From assembly GCA_016125495.1 (NCBI GenBank), contig WGLQ01000009.1, positions 124,001 to 188,000 of the forward strand: a DNA stretch of 64,000 bases, given 5' to 3'. Below are positions 21,292 to 62,995 of this stretch, piece by piece. This DNA is from Hyphomicrobiales bacterium. Lineage in GTDB: Bacteria > Pseudomonadota > Alphaproteobacteria > Rhizobiales > RI-29. Made by a program: the position numbers and the translations under genes. The first letter of the stretch is position 1. Each line of letters starts with the position of its first letter. The notes below the pieces were generated by a model that saw nothing but the letters and a program-made list of their open reading frames with translations, did no database searches and had not been told where the DNA came from.

Positions 21292-21747
21292 TCAATGCTC
21301 CTGCGGTGGAATGCGGGCAATCGACTGCTTGCGGAAGATCGTCGGGCGTTCGCGCCACGGCACGAGCCCGTCGGTGCTGGCGGCATAGGCCGTCACCCCC
21401 GCCACGATGTCGGCGACATGGTTTTCCGGGTCCAGGCGGCCGTAGACGTAGCCCCAGCGCCCGGGACCGGAGATGGCGATCGAGCAGCCGTTGACGCAGG
21501 CCGACAGGCACTCGACCGGCACGAGTTCCACCCCCTCGGGCAGGCCCGCTTCGGCGATCGCCGCGTGCAATCGCGCGCCCGGCCTCGGCTCGCCGGCTCC
21601 GGGATCGCGCAGCGCACCGTCGGGCCCATAGGCCGCCGCCCCGCGGCACGTCACGCAGACGTGCAACTTCACCCGGCCGGCCGGTCGCCCTGCCTGCTCC
21701 AGTTTTCGCTCGTCCTGCTCGCTGTCTGTCACCGCAACGCCCTTCAT
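21292..21747 (-). CDS. DUF1636 ferredoxin-like metal-binding protein
   Basis: The product is 151 residues. Its cysteines are arranged like those of thioredoxin-fold [2Fe-2S] ferredoxins: CVTC (Cys31, Cys34) and CLSACVNGC (Cys80, Cys84, Cys88). Family resemblance is to DUF1636 proteins often found beside cobW. It is the first coding gene after the cobalamin riboswitch. ATG 21747 is given as the start; GTG 21732, with AAGGG at a better distance, is a good alternative. A role in electron or metal transfer during cobalt insertion is inference. Confidence 0.82.
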   Translation of the reverse strand: MKGVAVTDSEQDERKLEQAGRPAGRVKLHVCVTCRGAAAYGPDGALRDPGAGEPRPGARLHAAIAEAGLPEGVELVPVECLSACVNGCSIAISGPGRWGYVYGRLDPENHVADIVAGVTAYAASTDGLVPWRERPTIFRKQSIARIPPQEH

Positions 21748-21847
21748 CGGGCGGGGGCCGACCGCACCATCGGCCAGCCGGACCGCCTGGCATTGCCAGC
21801 GCCCTGCCGACCGCGGCGCACCCCGTCCGCTCGTCAACACCACCTCG

Positions 21848-22039
21848 TGCTGGCAGGTCTCCCGGCTTGCGGAGTTCGAGGCAGCGCCTCTCGGCCACCC
21901 GCCTTCCCGGCTTTCGCCAGTGGCTGGGGGCCCCTCCGGTCACGGTCGCGGGGGCGGCTGCGCCTCGGTTGCGCACCCGGCATCGGCTGCGCGCCCTGTC
22001 GCATTCCCTCTTCGCCTGTCATAAGGACAGGAACCAGCA
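21848..22039 (-). promoter_or_regulatory. Cobalamin riboswitch upstream of the cob biosynthesis operon
   Basis: Read on the minus strand, the element begins with a TGCTGG arm and ends with its complement CCAGCA (P1). Between them are the B12-box features: GCCGCCCCCGCGACCGTGACCGG, the receptor-loop CCAGCCACTGGCG followed by GCCGGGAAGGCG, and the terminal GCCGGGAGACCTGCC. Bound adenosylcobalamin should repress the DUF1636-cobW-cobN-to-cobA run. The gap to the first start codon is about 100 bases and could hold the expression platform. Confidence 0.93.
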
Positions 22040-22085
22040 TCGCCCCACCTGATGCCCAACGCCATTCGTTGTCAAGGAACCGCGC

Positions 22086-34438: not shown

Positions 34439-34864
34439 TGGCGCGCCAGCGGTTGGTCATCGTCATCTGCCACCCGACGGACTGCGGTCGCACGCGCGCC
34501 GTCACGCCGATGCCGCCACGCATCGGGGTAGGTCTCCGAAAAATTATCAGGGGCTCGGCGCTTTTCGATGCCCATGCGCGCGCCTCGGCGCTGGCCCGAT
34601 GCGGTGACACATGCTAATTCTCAGGGGTTGTGGTTGCCTGCCCTTTCTGGGGACAGGCAGAATCGGGAACGCAGCAGGCGAGCCGCTACGTCCGGCTTTC
34701 CGATCTGCGGCCGCCCTCGCGACTGTGAACGGCGACCGTCTGCTCAATGGCCACTGGCTTCGGCTGGGAAGGTGAGCAGCCCGGCGAGACCCGTGAGCCA
34801 GGAGACCGGCCACAACACGTTGCCTGCCATGATCGCCGATGGGGCGATGAGAAGGGATACGCAG
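34439..34864. other. Leader region of cbtBA
   Basis: No gene is supported here. The first 190 bases show nothing recognisable; the rest is the cobalamin riboswitch (34627-34816) and the short stretch to the cbtB start, which contains the cbtB ribosome-binding region (AGAAGGGA). Confidence 0.6.
34627..34816 (+). promoter_or_regulatory. Cobalamin riboswitch upstream of cbtBA
   Basis: A GTTGTGG arm at the start pairs with CCACAAC at the end (P1). The core shows GCGACTGTGAACGGCGACC, GGCCACTGGCTTCGGCTGGGAAGG and the terminal GAGCCAGGAGACCGGCC, matching the conserved B12-box layout. It lies 48 bases before cbtB and should turn off cobalt import when B12 is plentiful. Confidence 0.92.
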
Positions 34865-35041
34865 ATGACCAACTACTCGACCACTCGCACCACCACGGCT
34901 TTCGACGGCGTCCGTGCCATCGCACTCGCCCTGTTCGTTGCCGGCGCCGCCCTCGTCTATACGGTCGGCTTCTCGCACTCGATGACTCTGCACAATGCCG
35001 CGCACGACTCGCGTCACGCGCTCGCATTCCCCTGCCACTGA
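34865..35041 (+). CDS. cbtB: Cobalt transporter subunit CbtB
   Basis: The product is 58 residues with one membrane span (VRAIALALFVAGAALVYTVGF) followed by the His-rich end SHSMTLHNAAHDSRHALAFPCH, the CbtB signature thought to bind cobalt. It is followed 6 bases later by cbtA, and the pair is preceded by a B12 riboswitch, the standard arrangement. Confidence 0.93.
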   Translation: MTNYSTTRTTTAFDGVRAIALALFVAGAALVYTVGFSHSMTLHNAAHDSRHALAFPCH

Positions 35042-35047
35042 AATTCC

Positions 35048-35833
35048 ATGCTCCATCGGATGCTGGCGGCCTGCCTCGCGGCAGGCCTTCTTGCTGGGCT
35101 TGCGACTGCGGCCCTGCAGGAATTCACCACGACTCCGCTGATCATCAAAGCCGAGGCCTATGAGTCGGGCGCGCCCGCCGATGGCCACGGACACGGTCAC
35201 GGTGGGCATAGCCATTCCGGACAGCAGAGTTCGCTCGGCGGCGACCCGCAGGGCAAGCTCGGCCACCCCGAGGTCACCATGTCGGCGACCGGCGACGCCT
35301 CACACGGCAGCGAGGCGAGCGTCTGGGCGCCAGCCGACGGCATCGAGCGCCAAGCCTTCACGGCGGTTTCCACCATCGCGCTCACCTTCGGCTTTGCGCT
35401 GATGCTGCTATCCGCGATGCTGATCGCAGGCGCACCGATCACGGCCCGCTCGGGACTCGCCTGGGCAGCCGCCGCGTTCGTTGCAACGGGCCTTGCCCCG
35501 GCTCTCGGGCTGAGCCCCGAATTGCCCGGATCGGCTGCCGCCGACCTCGTCGATCGCCAGTCGTGGTGGTTCGCCACGGCCGCCGCAACTGCGCTCGGTC
35601 TCTATCTGGCGCTGCGTGTCTCTTCCCCGATCGCGATTGCGGCCGGTCTGGTTCTGCTCGTCGCGCCCCATGTCGTCGGGGCCCCGCATCCCGAAGGCTA
35701 CACCAGCGGCGTTCCGTCAGAAATCGCCGGTCACTTCTCCGCCGCCTCACTCGTCGTCCATGCGGCGATGTGGGCCATGGTTGGAGCGATCGCCGGCTAC
35801 GTCTGGCAGCGGGGGGACGAGGCCGCCGCATAG
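35048..35833 (+). CDS. cbtA: Cobalt transporter subunit CbtA
   Basis: The product is 261 residues with about five membrane spans. The first helix (MLAACLAAGLLAGLATAAL) is followed by a His/Gly-rich loop DGHGHGHGGHSHSG (45-58), then further spans and the LVLLVAPHVVGAPHP segment typical of CbtA. CbtAB is proposed to import cobalt for corrin synthesis. Confidence 0.93.
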   Translation: MLHRMLAACLAAGLLAGLATAALQEFTTTPLIIKAEAYESGAPADGHGHGHGGHSHSGQQSSLGGDPQGKLGHPEVTMSATGDASHGSEASVWAPADGIERQAFTAVSTIALTFGFALMLLSAMLIAGAPITARSGLAWAAAAFVATGLAPALGLSPELPGSAAADLVDRQSWWFATAAATALGLYLALRVSSPIAIAAGLVLLVAPHVVGAPHPEGYTSGVPSEIAGHFSAASLVVHAAMWAMVGAIAGYVWQRGDEAAA

Positions 35834-57329: not shown

Positions 57330-58592
57330 ATGGACGAGAAACTCATCGCGCAGCGGTCGAACGACGCAGACCACGTCGATCGCCGCCTGCCTGTCACGGT
57401 GCTGTCGGGCTTTCTGGGCGCCGGCAAGACGACGCTGCTCAACAATGTGCTCGCCAACCGCGAGGGCAAGAAGGTCGCGGTCATCGTCAACGACATGAGC
57501 GAGGTCAACATCGACGCCGAACTCGTTCGCGACGGCGGTGCGAACCTCTCGCGCACCGACGAGACGCTGGTCGAGATGACCAACGGCTGCATCTGCTGCA
57601 CGCTGCGCGACGACCTCCTGAAGGAGGTCAAGAGCCTCGCGGCGCAAGGGCGCTTCGACTATCTCCTCATCGAATCGACTGGTATCGCAGAGCCGCTGCC
57701 CGTCGCCTCCACCTTCGAGTTCCGCGACGAGGAGGGAAACAGCCTGGCCGACGTCGCCCGTCTCGACACCATGGTGACAGTGGTCGATGCAGCAAATCTC
57801 CTGCGAGACTATTCATCGCACGACTTCCTCGCGGATCGGGGCGAGACGGCAGGTGAAAAGGACGGGCGCGCGTTGGTCGATCTCCTCGTCGAGCAGATCG
57901 AATTCGCCGACGTCATCGTGCTCAACAAACTTGATGTGGCGAATTCAAACGAGGTCGCTGCCGCGCGGGCCATCATACGCTCCCTCAACGCAGATGCCCG
58001 CATCATCGAGACGAGCAATGCGCAGGTCGAGATGTCCGCAATCATCGACACCGGTCTCTTCAGCTTCGAGGCCGCCCGTCGTCACCCGACGTGGCTCCAG
58101 GAGCTCAATGGATTCATGGATCACGTCCCAGAGACGGAGGAATACGGCATCTCGAGCTTCGTCTATCGGGCACGCCAGCCGTTCGATCCGGTCAAGGTGC
58201 ATTCGTTCTTTGCCAGGAATTGGCCGGGTGTCATCAGGGCGAAGGGCTTTTTCTGGATCGCATCGCGGGCTGAATTCGTCGGAGAACTGTCGCAGGCGGG
58301 TCCCATCGTGCGCACGGCGGGCGTGGGCTACTGGTGGGCGTCCGTGCCGCGCACAAACTGGCCCGAGGACGACCGCGCCGTTGCCCGCATCGAGAAGGGC
58401 TGGCACGACGTCTGGGGGGACCGGCGTCAGGAACTCGTATTCATCGGGACACCCGACATGAACGAGGCCGCCATCCGCTCCGAACTCGACGCCTGCCTCT
58501 TGGAAATCCCGAACAGCGACAACATCGACACGCGCGCGTGGCGTACCCTGCCGGACCCCTTCCCGACGTGGCGCAATGATGCGGCCGAATGA
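57330..58592 (+). CDS. COG0523 G3E GTPase, probable Zur-regulated zinc metallochaperone
   Basis: The product is 420 residues. The P-loop is GFLGAGKTT (27-35), the metal motif GCICC (Cys87, Cys89, Cys90), with [15 protein letters not shown] and the base loop VLNKLD. The C-terminal CobW_C domain has [18 protein letters not shown] and [10 protein letters not shown]. It is distinct from the pathway CobW at 20254-21291: longer, no His-rich stretch, and next to Zur-like operators. It fits the ZigA/ZagA subgroup that supplies zinc to client enzymes under zinc starvation. Confidence 0.9.
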
Positions 58593-59198
58593 GTGTGCCA
58601 CGCGATCAGGCAGGCCGAGACGATTGTGCGGCGGATGCATATCCGGGTTGCGCTCACGGTGGCGCCCACTTGCCACACGATGTTTTCTCAAGCGCACTGA
58701 TCGCAAGCGCGGTCAACTTTCATGACTTGACTTGGCAGGCACGGTTGCTCAAGTTGGATGTGCTCAGGTGCCATTTTCTCCGTATTGAGGAGATGGAAAA
58801 GGGAACACGGGACGTTCTGATTTCTCGTCGGAACGGAGCCGTGACTGCCCCCGCAACTGTGAGCGGCAAGCAGGTTCTGCAGGTACCACTGGCCAACTGA
58901 ACGAGAGGCCGGGAAGGTGCAGGGCAAGCGTTCGAGCCGCGAGTCAGGAGACCTGCCTGAGCACGGTCGTTCTTCCCTCGCGCGGTGGGCGCGTCGGAGG
59001 CGGATACGCTGTGGCGACCGATTTGTAACCCAATTGGGGAGCTCGTGGGATGCACAGCGCTTCGATACCGACCGTCTGACCCGTCGGACATCATTGCCGT
59101 CAAGCGGTGCTGCAAGGCGCATGTCCCCCGCGCGTTGCTGAGCCGTGCGACATGCCGCCTGCGGGCTCCCGATCGTTCTGTCGGGAGGCTTAAAAGTA
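58593..59198. other. Leader of btuB
   Basis: No gene is supported. The region holds the cobalamin riboswitch (58761-58963) and about 235 further bases to the btuB start, where the expression platform and the GGGAGG ribosome-binding site (about 59183) lie. Confidence 0.6.
58761..58963 (+). promoter_or_regulatory. Cobalamin riboswitch upstream of btuB
   Basis: An 8-base P1 helix (TGCTCAGG / CCTGAGCA) closes the element. The core includes AAAAGGGAAC, GCCGTGACTGCCCCCGCAAC, GTGAGCGG, CCACTGGCC, AGGCCGGGAAGG and GCGAGTCAGGAGACCTGCC, a near-textbook B12 element. It should repress B12 uptake genes when cobalamin is abundant. Confidence 0.96.
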
Positions 59199-61250
59199 AT
59201 GCGTAAACGAGGTGGCAATGGCGTCGGCGCGGCGCTGCTGACCGGATTGCTGGGCGGTGCGAGCGTGTTGGCGGGCGCCGTGTCCGCAACACAGAGCGCG
59301 AACGCTCAGGTCGTGCTCGAGGGCATCCTCATCACCGGCGACACGGCCGGCGGGGCCCCCGTTGCCGGAGAGACCGTCGGCACGGCGTTCACGGTGATCA
59401 CGGGCGAGCAGCTGCAACAGCAAGGGATCAAATATGCATCCGATGCGTTGCGCCAGGTTCCCGGCGTCGCGGTCTCGCGAACCGGTTCATTCGGCGAACT
59501 GACCCAGATCCGGATACGCGGCGCGGAGGGCAACCACGTGCTCGTTCTCGTGGATGGTGTCGAGGTCGCCGACCCGAGCCAAGGCGAGTTCGATTTCTCC
59601 AGTCTTCTCACCGAGAACATCGAGCGCATCGAGGTGCTTCGAGGGGCACAGAGCGCCCTCTGGGGAGCCGACGCACTTGCTGGCGTGATCAACATCGTCA
59701 CGAAGGCAGGGAGCCGGGGCACGAACGTGCAGGCCTCCTTCGAGGCAGGATCGTTCGACACCTACCAAGGCTCGGGCCGCATCGCTCATGGCAACGATCT
59801 CTTTCGCTTCGCCCTGAGCGGCACCCAACTGTCGACCAACGGCTTCGATATCTCCGAGTTCGGACGCACCATCGCGGACCCGACATCGGAGGATGACGGC
59901 TATGTCAACCGGACCCTGTCGTTCAAGGGCGACATCGATCTCCTGCCGTTCTTCAACGTGAGCGCGGTGCTTCGCCATGTCGACCGCCTGGGCGACGCGG
60001 ATGATCAGGATTTCACGTTCGGCAGTCCGACCCAAGGCTTCACGATCGACCGGTTCTCACAGTCCGGCAGCAAGGAGGCCTTTGCGCGGGTCGAAGCCAC
60101 GCTGAGCACCTTCCAGGACCATTGGGAACACGCCGTCTATTTCTCCATGTCGGATATCGAGCGCGAGAACTTCAACGATCTCGGCCGGTTCTCGTCGGGA
60201 AACTCGTCCACGCGCGAGACGACCGGCTATCGCTCGACCCTGAAGTTCGACACCCCCGAGCTCCTCGATGCCAGGCACACCATCGTCGAGCTCTACGAGC
60301 AGGAGACCGAGACCTTCCGAAATACCGCCCCGACCGCGGTCGGATCGGCTGGCGAGCGGCGGGAGCGGATGACCAAGAGTCTCGTCGGCGAGTATCGGCT
60401 GTCGCTGCTCGACAGCATTTTCCTCACCGCCGCCGTGCGCTCGGACGACTTCGACGGCTTCGATGATGCCGTGACCTACCGGACGACGGGCGCCTACGTC
60501 GTACGTGAGACCGGCACGCGTCTTCACGCGAGCTACGGCGAAGGCGTCAAGCCCCCCTCGTTCTTCGAGCAGTTCGGTTTCGTGCCCGACACGTTCGATG
60601 GCAACCCGAACCTCGTGCCGGAGACGTCGGTCTCCTGGGACGTCGGGATCGAGCAACGGATCATCCCCGGCATTCTGACCGTCGATGTCACCTATTTCGA
60701 GGCCAATCTCGACAACGAGATCTTCTCCACATTCTCGCTCACCCCGACGGGATTCAGGTCCAGCGTCGCCAACGAAGACGAGGAAAGCACGCGCGAGGGC
60801 ATCGAGGTCAGCCTGACGGCAACCCCGACAGACTGGCTGTCGATCAAGGGAAGCTACACCTATCTCGAGGCGTTCGAGAATCGCAACGGTGTGCGCCTGC
60901 TCGAGGTTCGGCGTCCGCAGCACTCCGGCAGCCTCGACATCTTCGCCCGGTTTCTCGACGGCCGTGCCCGGGCCAATCTGGGCATCGTCTACAATGGCGA
61001 GATGGACGACCTAGAGTTCGTCAACACCACGCCGCAGACGCGCATCACGCTGCCCGAATACACGGTTGTGCGTCTTGGGGCGGAATACGATCTCTCCGAC
61101 CAGATCACCTGGTACGCACGGGGCGAAAACGTCTTCAATGAGGACTACCAGGAGGTATACACGTTCGAGACCGCCGGGGCATCGTTCTACACGGGCATCC
61201 GCATGAACCTGTCGGACGTCCTTGGTGATGACTACGGGTCGCTCAAGTGA
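59199..61250 (+). CDS. btuB: TonB-dependent vitamin B12 receptor BtuB
   Basis: The product is 683 residues. The signal peptide ends near AQVVLEG (about 37); a TonB-box-like LEGILITGD follows. The plug has GTAFTVITGEQLQQQGIKYASDALRQVPGVAVSRTG, IRIRGAEGNHVLVLVDGVEVADPS and IEVLRGAQSALWGADALAGVINIVTK, typical of BtuB. It starts at ATG 59199, ten bases after GGGAGG. The riboswitch and the following btuF-btuC genes make cobalamin the near-certain substrate. Confidence 0.95.
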   Translation: MRKRGGNGVGAALLTGLLGGASVLAGAVSATQSANAQVVLEGILITGDTAGGAPVAGETVGTAFTVITGEQLQQQGIKYASDALRQVPGVAVSRTGSFGELTQIRIRGAEGNHVLVLVDGVEVADPSQGEFDFSSLLTENIERIEVLRGAQSALWGADALAGVINIVTKAGSRGTNVQASFEAGSFDTYQGSGRIAHGNDLFRFALSGTQLSTNGFDISEFGRTIADPTSEDDGYVNRTLSFKGDIDLLPFFNVSAVLRHVDRLGDADDQDFTFGSPTQGFTIDRFSQSGSKEAFARVEATLSTFQDHWEHAVYFSMSDIERENFNDLGRFSSGNSSTRETTGYRSTLKFDTPELLDARHTIVELYEQETETFRNTAPTAVGSAGERRERMTKSLVGEYRLSLLDSIFLTAAVRSDDFDGFDDAVTYRTTGAYVVRETGTRLHASYGEGVKPPSFFEQFGFVPDTFDGNPNLVPETSVSWDVGIEQRIIPGILTVDVTYFEANLDNEIFSTFSLTPTGFRSSVANEDEESTREGIEVSLTATPTDWLSIKGSYTYLEAFENRNGVRLLEVRRPQHSGSLDIFARFLDGRARANLGIVYNGEMDDLEFVNTTPQTRITLPEYTVVRLGAEYDLSDQITWYARGENVFNEDYQEVYTFETAGASFYTGIRMNLSDVLGDDYGSLK

Positions 61251-61283
61251 TCGCGTGACGCGCACTCGAGCAACAGCGCAGGG

Positions 61284-61313
61284 GCGAAAGGGCACTCAGC
61301 GGGGCCTTTTCGC
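61284..61313 (+). terminator. Hairpin after btuB
   Basis: A 10-base stem (GCGAAAGGGC / GCCTTTTCGC, one G-T pair) with a 10-base loop starts 34 bases past the btuB stop. Only a short T-containing stretch follows, so it may be a partial terminator that lowers expression of the downstream uptake genes relative to the receptor. Confidence 0.5.
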
Positions 61314-61451
61314 TCCGTTTGCCTTGGCGGGTGGGCCTCGAGCTCCGACTAGGACGGGCGGTCGCATCGGGCAGGCCCAAGCCGACGCGCCAGGGGATGG
61401 CGGCGCCTCTGATCCGCTGCACGAGAGGAATGGGGTACGAGAGGAATGGAC

Positions 61452-62051
61452 ATGATCGCGCTCCCCATATGTTCGCCCGAGCCAACCGAGACGCTACGCG
61501 CCGGCGATGGTTCGATCTCGCGCGAGTTGTGGCGAGTGCCGACGGACGAACAGGTGCTGGAAGCCTTCCTGCGCGACATCTTCGAGACGCATTGGGAGGG
61601 GATCCGTTTCGGGCCCCTGATCCAGGGTGCGGCCTACGAATGGAAGTGCCCTTCGGCGCCGACCAAGATCGATCTGATGGATGGCTATCTCACCGTCCAC
61701 TTCGGTCGCGGCGGGCATTTTCATCTCTGCATCGGCGAGAACAAGGGAAGCGAGGCCTTTCCGACGCCGCCGGAGCTGCGGGCCCACCGCAGGCCGTCCA
61801 AGGCACAGATTTTCCGGGGCTACGGTCGAGACGGAAAACCCGTCACCTGGGGCTTCGAGATGTGGAACGGCAAGGACGAGCCGATGATCTCAATCTTCTT
61901 TGCCAACCCATTCATCGACGATGACGACACCCTCGCCAACGAGCCTCGATGGGAGCGCCTCGCCATGTGGCGCAGCATCGCCGAGCGCTGGCTCGGGCGC
62001 GCACCGGAGCCGATCGACGAGCAGGGGGCAGGCTTCAGGGGGCGCGCATGA
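61452..62051 (+). CDS. Uncharacterised protein in the B12 uptake operon
   Basis: The product is 199 residues, soluble, without signal peptide or membrane spans. Notable segments are THWEGIRFGPLIQGAAYEWKC, MDGYLTVHFGRGGHFHLCIGENKG, FRGYGRDGKPVTWGFEMWNGKDE and SIFFANPFIDDDD. I believe relatives (DUF7676-like) occur beside B12 or heme uptake genes, but this is from memory. Cys68 and the HFHLC segment could bind a metal or corrinoid. ATG 61452 is preferred because GAGAGGA lies at a proper distance; ATG 61446 is too close. Its stop overlaps btuF by ATGA, so it is translated with the transporter. Confidence 0.8.
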   Translation: MIALPICSPEPTETLRAGDGSISRELWRVPTDEQVLEAFLRDIFETHWEGIRFGPLIQGAAYEWKCPSAPTKIDLMDGYLTVHFGRGGHFHLCIGENKGSEAFPTPPELRAHRRPSKAQIFRGYGRDGKPVTWGFEMWNGKDEPMISIFFANPFIDDDDTLANEPRWERLAMWRSIAERWLGRAPEPIDEQGAGFRGRA

Positions 62052-62995
62052 GGACGACAGTTCGAGGGGGCGTGGCAGCGGCTCTGTCGTTTGCGCTACT
62101 CGACGCCCCGACCGGGCCGGTACATGCCGAGCCGCCGCGGCGCGTCGTCTCGATGAACCTGTGCACAGACCAACTCGCCATGCTGCTGGCGGCACCCGGC
62201 CAGCTCCACTCGGTCTCCTACCTCGCCAGCCGCGCCGACACCTCCGTGCTCGCGGCCGAGGCCAGGGCCTTCGTCCCCAATCATGGCCTTGCGGAAGAAA
62301 TCTTCCTGATGCAGCCGGACCTGATTATTGCCGGCACCTTCACCACGCGTGCCACCGTCGAGATGCTCAAGCGGTTGGGCTTTCCCGTGGAGGAATTCGC
62401 TCCGGCCAATTCGTTCGCCGACATCCGAAGCAACATCCTGCGGATGGGCGAGGTCCTCGGCCGACAGGCTGCGGCTCGGGCCCTGATCGGTGGCTTCGAT
62501 CGCGAGTTGGCGACACTCACCGAGGAGGCGGGTCAGGGCCAGGCCGGGCGCAAACCTGTTCGTCCCATTGCCGCGCTCTACTATGCCAACAGCTACACCT
62601 CCGGCAACAACACGCTTGCTGCAGAGGTCGTGGATCACGCCCAACTCGACAACCTCGGCAGCGGGCTCGGTCTCAAGGGCACGGTCACGCTGCCACTGGA
62701 ACTCCTCGTGATGAACGGCCCCGATCTCGTCGTCACCGGACGACGCTTCGGGCGTGAGGGGACGCAGGCGACCGTGGCACTCGAGCATCCTGCCCTCGAG
62801 GCCGTCGCATCGAGGACCACATCGGCGGTGGTGACGGACAAATACTGGGTCTGCGGGCTTCCCTTCACCCTTCATGCCGTTCGCCGTCTCGTCGAGGCCG
62901 CGCGATCCCTCGACCTGAGGCCAATCGCGCCGCCAGCCCTCGCCACCACGTCCTTCGCGCCTGCCAACCTCGACGAGGGGGCGAGACGCCAGTGA
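62048..62995 (+). CDS. btuF: Periplasmic cobalamin-binding protein BtuF-like
   Basis: The product is 315 residues. A signal peptide ends near VHA/EPP (27). The mature part has RRVVSMNLCTDQLAMLLA and LIIAGTFTTRATVEMLKRLGFPVEEF, the type III substrate-binding fold of the BtuF/FhuD/FecB group. It would deliver cobalamin from the periplasm to BtuC. It overlaps the preceding gene (ATGA) and btuC (GTGA). Confidence 0.9.
   Translation: MRTTVRGGVAAALSFALLDAPTGPVHAEPPRRVVSMNLCTDQLAMLLAAPGQLHSVSYLASRADTSVLAAEARAFVPNHGLAEEIFLMQPDLIIAGTFTTRATVEMLKRLGFPVEEFAPANSFADIRSNILRMGEVLGRQAAARALIGGFDRELATLTEEAGQGQAGRKPVRPIAALYYANSYTSGNNTLAAEVVDHAQLDNLGSGLGLKGTVTLPLELLVMNGPDLVVTGRRFGREGTQATVALEHPALEAVASRTTSAVVTDKYWVCGLPFTLHAVRRLVEAARSLDLRPIAPPALATTSFAPANLDEGARRQ

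What the first reader, a model, noticed from the sequence alone, without database searches (positions are those of the whole stretch)
61452..62051. Uncharacterised soluble protein translationally coupled to btuF under a B12 riboswitch
The gene sits between btuB and btuF and overlaps btuF by ATGA. It has no signal peptide, so it should act in the cytoplasm, and has an HFHLC segment. Coupling to the transporter suggests a role in receiving or processing imported corrinoid, for which btuBFCD has no standard partner of this kind.
Basis: partly seen in the sequence, partly recalled or inferred. Interest (0 to 1): 0.55.

Follow-up and report, generated by a model that had tools for sequence, protein, structure and literature searches.

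The report
HemS-like protein in vitamin B12 import
A bacterial gene of unknown function, sitting in the vitamin B12 uptake operon, is predicted to fold like the proteins that receive imported heme inside the cell, and some of its relatives are tied to iron-sulphur redox proteins, so it probably receives and helps to reduce imported vitamin B12.

Summary
The gene is real. It starts most plausibly at 61452, overlaps btuF by ATGA, and is Pfam PF24724 (DUF7676, 226.6 bits, cut-off 27), a family without assigned function. Operon: B12 riboswitch, btuB, DUF7676, btuF, btuC, btuD, DUF6925, exbB, tonB.

Three new points:
(1) The predicted structure (pLDDT 92.9) matches the cytosolic heme-trafficking fold HutX/ChuX/HemS. 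The 11 PDB chains with E<=0.001 are ten HutX/ChuX-type chains and one unnamed protein; best Z 10.6, first unrelated entry 3.5.
(2) At places from random genome draws, 12 of 15 DUF7676 genes have a cobalamin riboswitch upstream; HemS genes, 0 of 15.
(3) DUF7676 is tied to [2Fe-2S] proteins in three phyla: fused ferredoxin in cyanobacteria (7 of 7 full-length plasmid records), gene directly upstream in actinobacteria (9 of 9 loci seen), adjacent gene in Chloroflexota (3 of 7).

Best reading: a cytosolic corrinoid acceptor that presents imported cobalamin for reduction. Binding and chemistry are untested, and sequence-profile homology to HutX/HemS is only suggestive, so "works like", not "member of".

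The parts
58749..58974 (+). cobalamin riboswitch aptamer (RF00174) upstream of btuB
   Evidence: 111 bits, gathering score 31.5; one of three found in the genome, all three inside the window (which scored 150 of 245 first-look candidates)
59199..61250 (+). btuB, TonB-dependent cobalamin receptor
   Evidence: Plug and TonB_dep_Rec; best NCBIfam model TIGR01779 TonB-B12 at 217.8 bits, below its cut-off of 599.7; ATG 59199 chosen for its GGGAGG
61452..62051 (+). DUF7676 gene: proposed cytosolic corrinoid acceptor with HutX/HemS-like predicted fold (in-frame ATG also at 61446)
   Evidence: PF24724 226.6 bits; model; fold matches
61716..61730 (+). HFHLC motif (H91 to C95 counted from ATG 61446); both His and the Cys are invariant in 71 relatives; the HxH register falls on the HGH/xGH motif of HutX/ChuX
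   Evidence: both His and the Cys also kept in six cyanobacterial fusions
62048..62995 (+). btuF, periplasmic binding protein, ATGA overlap with the DUF7676 gene
   Evidence: PF01497, 51.8 bits
62992..63987 (+). btuC, FecCD-type permease, GTGA overlap with btuF
   Evidence: PF01032, 280.2 bits
63984..64000 (+). btuD, first bases; continues outside the window (L097:484-1293), followed by DUF6925 (L097:1301-2371), exbB (L097:2518-3354) and tonB (L097:4161-5216)

Best explanation
The gene encodes a cytosolic corrinoid acceptor that does for cobalamin what HutX/HemS/PhuS does for heme. Shown: membership of PF24724; the operon; recurrent linkage of the gene to cobalamin riboswitches and BtuFCD-type importers; a predicted HutX/ChuX/HemS-like fold; invariant HxHxC; fusion or adjacency to [2Fe-2S]-type proteins in three phyla. 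Inferred: corrinoid leaving BtuCD is bound at the HxHxC edge of the fold, where a His or the Cys can take an axial position on cobalt. The bound Co(III) corrinoid is then reduced (and its cyanide or other upper ligand lost) by an iron-sulphur donor, which is built in in cyanobacteria, encoded next door in actinobacteria and some Chloroflexota, and probably a general ferredoxin or flavodoxin in proteobacteria. The reduced corrinoid is passed to the adenosyltransferase, to CbiZ remodelling or to the user enzyme. This traps the vitamin inside the cell.
For: Fold: AlphaFold2 model pLDDT 92.9, pTM 0.90. Foldseek against PDB: ChuX 2.4e-5 with probability 1.00; 11 chains at E<=0.001, ten of them from ChuX, HutX, 2ph0 and 2hqv (a HutX query finds 2ph0 and 2hqv at 3.7e-26 and 3.4e-22) and one from 3na2, an unnamed protein. 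VIA Z 10.6/10.5/10.4, first unrelated 3.5. Context: riboswitch upstream on the same strand at 12 of 15 places (13 genomes) from random draws against 0 of 15 HemS loci; BtuB plus BtuF or BtuC beside 10 of these 15. The operon occurs without an outer membrane: riboswitch, FecCD permease, ATPase, FhuF-like, DUF7676 in three Streptomyces loci and Longispora and in Rhodococcus, so the job does not depend on BtuB. Redox partners: ferredoxin domain fused in all 7 cyanobacterial plasmid records matched over their length (six inspected, four invariant Cys); a FhuF-like gene with CC-x10-C-x2-C directly upstream in 8 of 8 actinobacterial loci checked for the motif, with stop/start overlap in 7 of 8, and an annotated (2Fe-2S)-binding protein directly upstream in a ninth; a ferredoxin gene next to it in L085 and L090, and in L086 a neighbouring gene that joins such a ferredoxin (55% identical to L090's over 112 aa) to the adenosyltransferase CobA/BtuR. 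Corrinoid-handling neighbours: CbiZ (L060, L037, L204), Cob_adeno_trans (L078), cobyric acid synthase (L045). Precedents: PhuS hands imported heme to HemO (PMC12670364, passages); ChuX/ChuS/HutX are cytosolic heme binders with similar folds (PMC10404700, passages); Cys80 of BtuM ligates cobalt and is required for decyanation (PMC6072759, passages).
Against: No binding or activity data. Profile-profile comparison is weak: the pooled HutX+HemS profile gives probability 6.6%, P 0.0055, score 23.5, above every control (BtuB 21.4, best of 100 column shuffles 20.4), but taken apart the HutX (20.1), HemS-N (16.8) and HemS-C (18.6) profiles score below the BtuB control. The ChuX His65 position is Leu58 here. 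The ferredoxin domains score below Pfam's curated cut-off for PF01257 (18-23 against 24.8), and for L086 Pfam lists only CobA. No iron-sulphur protein was found among the genes of the window's own operon that I scanned. 29 of the 80 best relatives show neither riboswitch nor btu-like gene, and 6 of the other 51 have only an ATPase-type hit. The family is patchy (13 of 289 genomes of the class, own included). FhuF-like genes are common beside siderophore importers (recalled), so their link may be to FecCD-type importers in general. The ninth actinobacterial case has no importer gene annotated nearby.
Confidence: 0.55

Rival explanations
1. Pure chaperone or sink: it binds corrinoid released by BtuCD and delivers it, with no redox role; the [2Fe-2S] partners serve other steps such as the adenosyltransferase.
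For: The HutX and PhuS paradigm is carriage (PMC12670364, passages); no iron-sulphur protein was found among the scanned genes of the window's own operon; in L086 the ferredoxin is joined to the adenosyltransferase, not to DUF7676.
Against: Fusion of DUF7676 itself to a ferredoxin in 7 of 7 cyanobacterial plasmid records and the 8 of 8 FhuF-like neighbours in actinobacteria point to electron delivery at this protein.
Confidence: 0.22
2. It is itself a decyanase or dealkylase in which the invariant Cys (or a His) attacks the upper ligand, as Cys80 does in BtuM.
For: Invariant HxHxC in 71 aligned relatives; Cys80 of BtuM is required for decyanation (PMC6072759, passages).
Against: The Cys may be structural; its place relative to a bound corrinoid is unknown; the ferredoxin partners suggest that electrons come from outside.
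Confidence: 0.1
3. A heme protein: DUF7676 handles heme, and its place in B12 operons reflects control of heme or iron use by B12.
For: Fold; HxH falls on the HGH/xGH motif of HutX/ChuX.
Against: Cobalamin riboswitch upstream of 12 of 15 against 0 of 15 for HemS; ligand set changed (His65 position lost, H91 and C95 invariant); CbiZ, CobA/BtuR, cobyric acid synthase and adenosyltransferase genes among the neighbours.
Confidence: 0.05
4. A helper of FecCD-type importers for several metal chelates, B12 being the commonest; it would reduce siderophores or other cargo with FhuF.
For: FhuF-like partners; 29 of 80 loci without riboswitch or btu-like gene.
Against: Riboswitches upstream in proteobacteria, actinobacteria, cyanobacteria and Chloroflexota; the gene stays with CbiZ even where btuFCD is absent (L204).
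Confidence: 0.06

Closest known systems
HutX / ChuX (PF06228) and HemS / ChuS / PhuS (PF05171), cytosolic heme acceptors
   Same: Predicted fold (Z 9.8-10.6 to the single-domain members ChuX, HutX, 2ph0 and 2hqv, 6.2-7.6 to two-domain HemS/PhuS/ChuS); place in the operon after a TonB receptor and before the importer genes, as in hmuRSTUV (order recalled); soluble and, by its N-terminus, cytosolic; HxH in the register of HutX HGH
   Different: No PF06228 or PF05171 match in the window's genome; only suggestive profile similarity; ChuX His65 position is Leu; extra invariant His and Cys; under B12 control; fused or adjacent to ferredoxin/FhuF in three phyla
BtuM, small membrane B12 transporter with Cys-mediated decyanation
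   Same: Invariant Cys and B12 uptake; a cobalt-liganding Cys is proposed by analogy only
   Different: BtuM is an integral membrane protein with six transmembrane helices; DUF7676 is soluble in the model and unrelated in sequence as far as searched
MMACHC / CblC, cytosolic cobalamin-processing protein of animals
   Same: Proposed job: receive imported cobalamin, remove the upper ligand, pass it on (CblC's job partly recalled)
   Different: CblC uses flavin as reductant (PMC6072759, passages); here the likely donors are iron-sulphur proteins and the predicted fold is HutX-like
PF24724 (DUF7676)
   Same: It is a member, 226.6 bits
   Different: The family has no assigned function; this report proposes one

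Membership tests
PF24724 DUF7676 | profile score over the curated cut-off of 27 bits | tested here: met
   226.6 bits, E 1.5e-67
HutX/ChuX (PF06228), HemS (PF05171) | match to the family profile | tested here: not met
   hmmscan at E<=0.001 lists only DUF7676 for the protein; 0 matches in genome G000 for either family
HutX/ChuX/HemS superfamily | fold | tested here: met
   predicted model only: Foldseek probability 1.00, E 2.4e-5; Z 10.5 at rmsd 3.2 over 130 residues to ChuX
HutX/ChuX/HemS superfamily | sequence homology by profile-profile comparison | tested here: inconclusive
   pooled profile: probability 6.6%, P 0.0055, score 23.5 against at most 21.4 in controls; separate HutX, HemS-N and HemS-C profiles 20.1, 16.8, 18.6
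HutX/ChuX | histidine positions His65 and His98 of ChuX (their role in heme binding is recalled) | tested here: inconclusive
   H93 falls on His98 of ChuX and Leu58 on the His65 position, by low-probability profile alignment
HutX/ChuX/HemS superfamily | binds heme | not testable with these tools
   needs purified protein
BtuM | six transmembrane helices | tested here: not met
   soluble alpha/beta fold in the predicted model
MMACHC/CblC | fold | tested here: inconclusive
   the fold searches do not settle it; a family that is not listed is not excluded
cobalamin riboswitch operon | RF00174 upstream | tested here: met
   58749-58974, 111 bits; one transcript not shown

The most novel reading that the evidence does not exclude
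DUF7676 is the bacterial counterpart of the animal cobalamin-processing protein CblC, evolved from the heme-acceptor fold. It accepts imported cobalamin, cyano- or otherwise capped, in base-off form through its invariant HxHxC edge. [2Fe-2S] partners (a fused ferredoxin, FhuF-like proteins) drive its reduction and loss of the upper ligand, before handover to adenosyltransferase, CbiZ or corrinoid enzymes.
Probability: 0.33. Interest if true: 0.8.

Novelty: new variant of a known kind. Interest (0 to 1): 0.62.

Why it matters
What happens to cobalamin between BtuCD and the enzymes that use it is, as far as I know, little studied in bacteria, while the heme pathway has named acceptors at that step. 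A soluble protein with the heme acceptors' predicted fold, in the same place of the B12 operon and tied in three phyla to iron-sulphur redox partners, makes that step testable by simple spectroscopy. If right, it would give a whole Pfam family a function, show that one fold serves both heme and corrinoid delivery, and provide a bacterial model for reductive cobalamin processing.

Tried and rejected
Profile-profile proof of homology to HutX/HemS was tried with several alignments. Only the pooled profiles (23.0 and 23.5) beat every control; the separate ones (20.1, 16.8, 18.6) fall below the BtuB control (21.4). So homology is stated as suggestive.

A sequence search of solved structures with the protein or its profile found nothing credible.

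The animal CblC fold was considered before the model was made. It is not among the rows listed, which does not exclude it.

The name BtuN was recalled as a possible older name. The two papers that use it (PMC7038796, PMC8954225, passages read) speak of a receptor gene and a transporter and do not tie it to this family, so it was dropped.

DUF6925, the next unknown gene of the operon, was modelled from 8 sequences (pLDDT 82.3); no PDB match had E<=0.001.

Paper searches for DUF7676 (0 papers), PF24724 and DUF6925 (both 0), HutX/ChuX/HemS with cobalamin, a cytosolic cobalamin chaperone or reductase with btuF, and B12 riboswitch with 2Fe-2S ferredoxin and btuB showed no report of this protein as far as titles and abstract starts in the listings tell; I read passages of PMC3597751, PMC12670364 and PMC10404700 only. 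Most subscription papers are not held.

Caveats on counts. The 80 named loci are the best 80 of 278, so they lean towards the window's relatives. The 15 random-draw places lie in 13 genomes, three of them of one genus, and six of the 15 are on contigs of the same length as loci among the 80, so the two sets overlap. Of the 15 HemS controls, L215 and L219 have under 600 bases upstream. One of the 12 riboswitch matches (L197) is cut by the contig end. L057 and L058 look like one genome binned twice under two phyla. The riboswitch model R1 was built mostly from alphaproteobacterial copies and under-scores others, so most cyanobacterial, actinobacterial and Chloroflexota loci were also searched with Rfam; this adds L074 and L090 to the 35 of 80. 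The two Trichormus plasmid records have identical fusions, so the 7 records are 6 distinct proteins. The tree labels were set by me, L094 by hand.

Full report
THE OBSERVATION. The ORF has in-frame ATGs at 61446 and 61452 and stops at 62049-62051; GAGG at 61441-61444 favours 61452. The stop overlaps btuF (62048-62995) as ATGA; btuF overlaps btuC as GTGA, and btuC overlaps btuD as GTGA. A cobalamin riboswitch lies at 58749-58974, before btuB (59199-61250). After btuD, outside the window, come DUF6925, an ExbB homologue and a TonB homologue. A search of the genome found three cobalamin riboswitches, all inside this window (it scored 150 of 245 first-look candidates). One of the other two precedes a DUF1636-cobW-cobN stretch and one precedes cbtA, so the organism probably makes B12 as well as importing it (inference). 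Among 22 relatives with btuF next, the exact 4-nt overlap recurs in 3, a possible btuF start lies before the end of DUF7676 in 15, and within 40 nt of it in 21. Residue numbers below count from ATG 61446.

WHAT THE PROTEIN IS. It is a clear member of Pfam PF24724, DUF7676 (226.6 bits, cut-off 27), a family of unknown function. NCBIfam gave no match at E<=0.001. In 71 aligned members H91, F92, H93, C95, I96, G97, E65, D79, Y81, T83, R115, R124, W135, N141 and G142 are among the invariant residues. In draws from the window's class and phylum the family is patchy: 13 of 289 genomes, 3 of 398 and 1 of 41 close relatives, the own genome included each time. A genome scan confirmed 278 relatives, of which the best 80 were kept; by their titles they come from Pseudomonadota, Actinomycetota, Chloroflexota and Verrucomicrobiota. 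Plasmid records add cyanobacteria.

FOLD. AlphaFold2 on the 71-sequence alignment gave pLDDT 92.9 and pTM 0.90. Foldseek against the PDB gave 11 chains with E<=0.001: ten from ChuX, HutX, 2ph0 and 2hqv, and one of 3na2. A HutX sequence finds 2ph0 and 2hqv at 3.7e-26 and 3.4e-22, so they belong to that family; 3na2 is an unnamed protein. HemS, ChuS and PhuS follow at E 0.011-0.027 with probability 0.99-1.00. The second aligner gives Z 10.6 (2hqv), 10.5 (ChuX) and 10.4 (HutX), and 3.5 for the first unrelated entry. Profile-profile alignment is weak. A pooled HutX+HemS profile scores 23.5 (probability 6.6%, P 0.0055), above every control: BtuB 21.4, DUF6925 17.4, BtuC 16.1, ExbB 15.0, BtuF 13.4, BtuD 12.4, A6 11.4, reversed profile 17.8, best of 100 column shuffles 20.4. 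Taken apart, HutX alone scores 20.1, HemS-C 18.6 and HemS-N 16.8, below the BtuB control. In the HutX register the GY of DGYLTV falls on the GY of HutX GYYNL, and HFHL on HGHL; the second His corresponds to ChuX His98, while Leu58 takes the place of ChuX His65. That His65 and His98 matter for heme in ChuX is recalled, not read here.

CONTEXT, WITH A CONTROL. From the random draws I took 15 DUF7676 places in 13 genomes with up to 6 kb on each side, the own gene left out, and 15 HemS places as control. A cobalamin riboswitch lies upstream on the same strand at 12 of 15 DUF7676 places (one of them cut by the contig end) and none was found in the 15 HemS stretches. The three without are L193, L194 (a 4.5-kb contig) and L198, the second copy of one genome. 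BtuB plus BtuF or BtuC hits flank DUF7676 at 10 of 15; L205 has a weak BtuB hit, and L204 has a TonB-receptor ORF by reading. 13 of the 15 HemS stretches also hold a FecCD-type permease and ATPase, so the difference is the riboswitch, not the importer type. Two HemS stretches (L215, L219) have under 600 bases upstream. Among the 80 best relatives, R1 finds a riboswitch upstream on the same strand within 6 kb in 35 (34 of the 61 that have 3 kb of upstream sequence), and Rfam adds L074 and L090. A BtuB-, BtuF- or BtuC-like gene lies within 6 kb in 45, only an ATPase-type hit in 6 more, and 29 have neither riboswitch nor any of these. Of those 29, six have a reductive-dehalogenase-like gene directly downstream (L024, L025, L028, L031, L032, L033; clustering, L025 identified), L045 has a cobyric acid synthase gene beside it and L019 a BLAST relative of that gene, L075 and L076 sit beside cobU/cobS- or cobQ-like genes (clustering, reading), and L049, L051, L071, L088 and L094 have under 1.8 kb of upstream sequence. 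The other 14 have at least 2.6 kb upstream and no corrinoid gene that I recognised; these weigh against a strict link. On a tree of 71 members the linked state is spread over both halves, and the unlinked rows need at least 7 changes on well supported branches, which fits repeated loss of linkage from a linked ancestor, though the tree is not rooted.

REDOX PARTNERS. In cyanobacterial plasmids the DUF7676 domain carries a C-terminal thioredoxin-like [2Fe-2S] ferredoxin domain: all 7 records that match the protein at 99-100% coverage have it, two of them identical. Six were inspected: all have a TonB receptor gene directly before the fusion; five continue with binding-protein and permease genes (Acaryochloris with one gene between) and have a cobalamin riboswitch upstream. 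Gloeocapsopsis has neither the importer genes next to it nor a riboswitch in the stretch seen. Four cysteines are invariant over these six, three Chloroflexota ferredoxins and one from Rhodococcus, although Pfam scores stay under the curated cut-off. In actinobacteria, a FhuF-like protein with CC-x10-C-x2-C is encoded directly upstream in 8 of 8 loci checked (seven and one Rhodococcus plasmid), and its stop codon overlaps the DUF7676 start in 7 of 8. A ninth locus, a Streptomyces anulatus plasmid, has an annotated (2Fe-2S)-binding protein directly upstream; there the DUF7676 stretch carries no listed gene and no importer gene is annotated nearby. Five of the eight have a cobalamin riboswitch upstream on the same strand (L079, L082, L084, L087, L223); L091 has riboswitches nearby in other arrangements, L092 none found, L094 is cut by the contig end. 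These cells have no outer membrane of the BtuB kind, so the protein's job does not depend on BtuB. In Chloroflexota, L085 and L090 have a ferredoxin gene next to DUF7676, and in L086 the next gene joins a ferredoxin, recognised by 55% identity to L090's, to the corrinoid adenosyltransferase CobA/BtuR: 3 of 7 loci of that phylum, L057 left out as probably misbinned.

OTHER CORRINOID NEIGHBOURS. CbiZ, which remodels imported corrinoids (recalled), lies near DUF7676 in L037, L060 and L204 by Pfam and in L061 and L062 by clustering; a Cob_adeno_trans gene directly precedes it in L078.

MECHANISM PROPOSED. Step 1, inferred from the riboswitch and gene order: the protein is made together with the importer when B12 is scarce. 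Step 2, inferred from the fold and from HutX/PhuS (PMC12670364 and PMC10404700, passages read): it takes corrinoid in the cytosol. Step 3, inferred from HxHxC and from BtuM Cys80 (PMC6072759, passages read): a His or the Cys coordinates cobalt. Step 4, inferred from fusion and adjacency: electrons from a [2Fe-2S] centre reduce the bound corrinoid and release its upper ligand. Step 5, inferred from neighbours: the product goes to the adenosyltransferase, CbiZ or the user enzyme. None of the five steps has been tested at the bench.

MEMBERSHIP AND NOVELTY. It works like HutX/HemS, but it fails the family profiles and its ligand residues differ, so it is not filed as a member. It is a member of PF24724. 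I rate it a new variant of a known kind: the acceptor step of an importer, known for heme, here proposed for B12 with a redox partner. I found no earlier report in the open-access library (searches, judged from listings and the passages named); most subscription papers are not held, so this is not proof of absence.

Noticed in passing
L204:6622-7173, L017:11542-12102, L023:11542-12114, L055:10494-11147, L066:10489-11232, L075:754-1494, L044:3484-4119: A small membrane-protein-like family without Pfam match follows or lies near DUF7676; in L017, L023, L055, L066, L075 and L204 no btuFCD was seen beside it (L017 has BtuC/BtuD hits about 5 kb on, after a second riboswitch). It has an invariant Cys in or near the first hydrophobic stretch and invariant W..NQ. 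It may be an alternative inner-membrane corrinoid transporter.
   Followed up: partly
L097:1301-2371 (directly after btuD of the window's operon): DUF6925 (PF21973, 381.3 bits) is a second unknown gene of the operon; a DUF6925-like gene lies within 6 kb of DUF7676 in 9 of 80 loci. Invariant GPHTH motif; model pLDDT 82.3 without a PDB match at E<=0.001.
   Followed up: partly
L024, L025:10613-11824, L027, L028, L031, L032, L033: Directly downstream of DUF7676 in seven related MAG loci is a 404-aa (or contig-cut) reductive-dehalogenase-like protein (clustering); the L025 copy scores over the TIGR02486 cut-off (165.5 against 160.35) and matches PceA at 1.9e-44.
   Followed up: partly
L086:4124-5164: A thioredoxin-like [2Fe-2S] ferredoxin (by similarity) joined to the corrinoid adenosyltransferase CobA/BtuR, which suggests direct electron supply to the adenosyltransferase.
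   Followed up: partly
window 57330-58592: A ZigA-type zinc metallochaperone GTPase (NF038288, 609.6 against 600 bits) lies just before the riboswitch; it is a CobW-family protein but named for zinc.
   Followed up: no
window 21295-22053 (-) and 34614-35833 (+): Two more cobalamin riboswitches: one before DUF1636-cobW-cobN, one before cbtA. DUF1636 itself resembles thioredoxin-like ferredoxins weakly (L099 copy, 18.5 against 24.8 bits) and also precedes the TonB receptor in Trichormus and Halotia, so it might be a redox partner in proteobacteria.
   Followed up: partly
window 61281-61316 and 61421-61449: Local hairpin and a 13-nt direct repeat (ACGAGAGGAATGG twice, spacing 16) in the btuB-DUF7676 gap; the fold of the whole gap is not better than shuffles.
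   Followed up: partly
L057 and L058: Operons with identical hit coordinates and scores in MAGs labelled Anaerolineae and Alphaproteobacteria; probably one genome misbinned.
   Followed up: no
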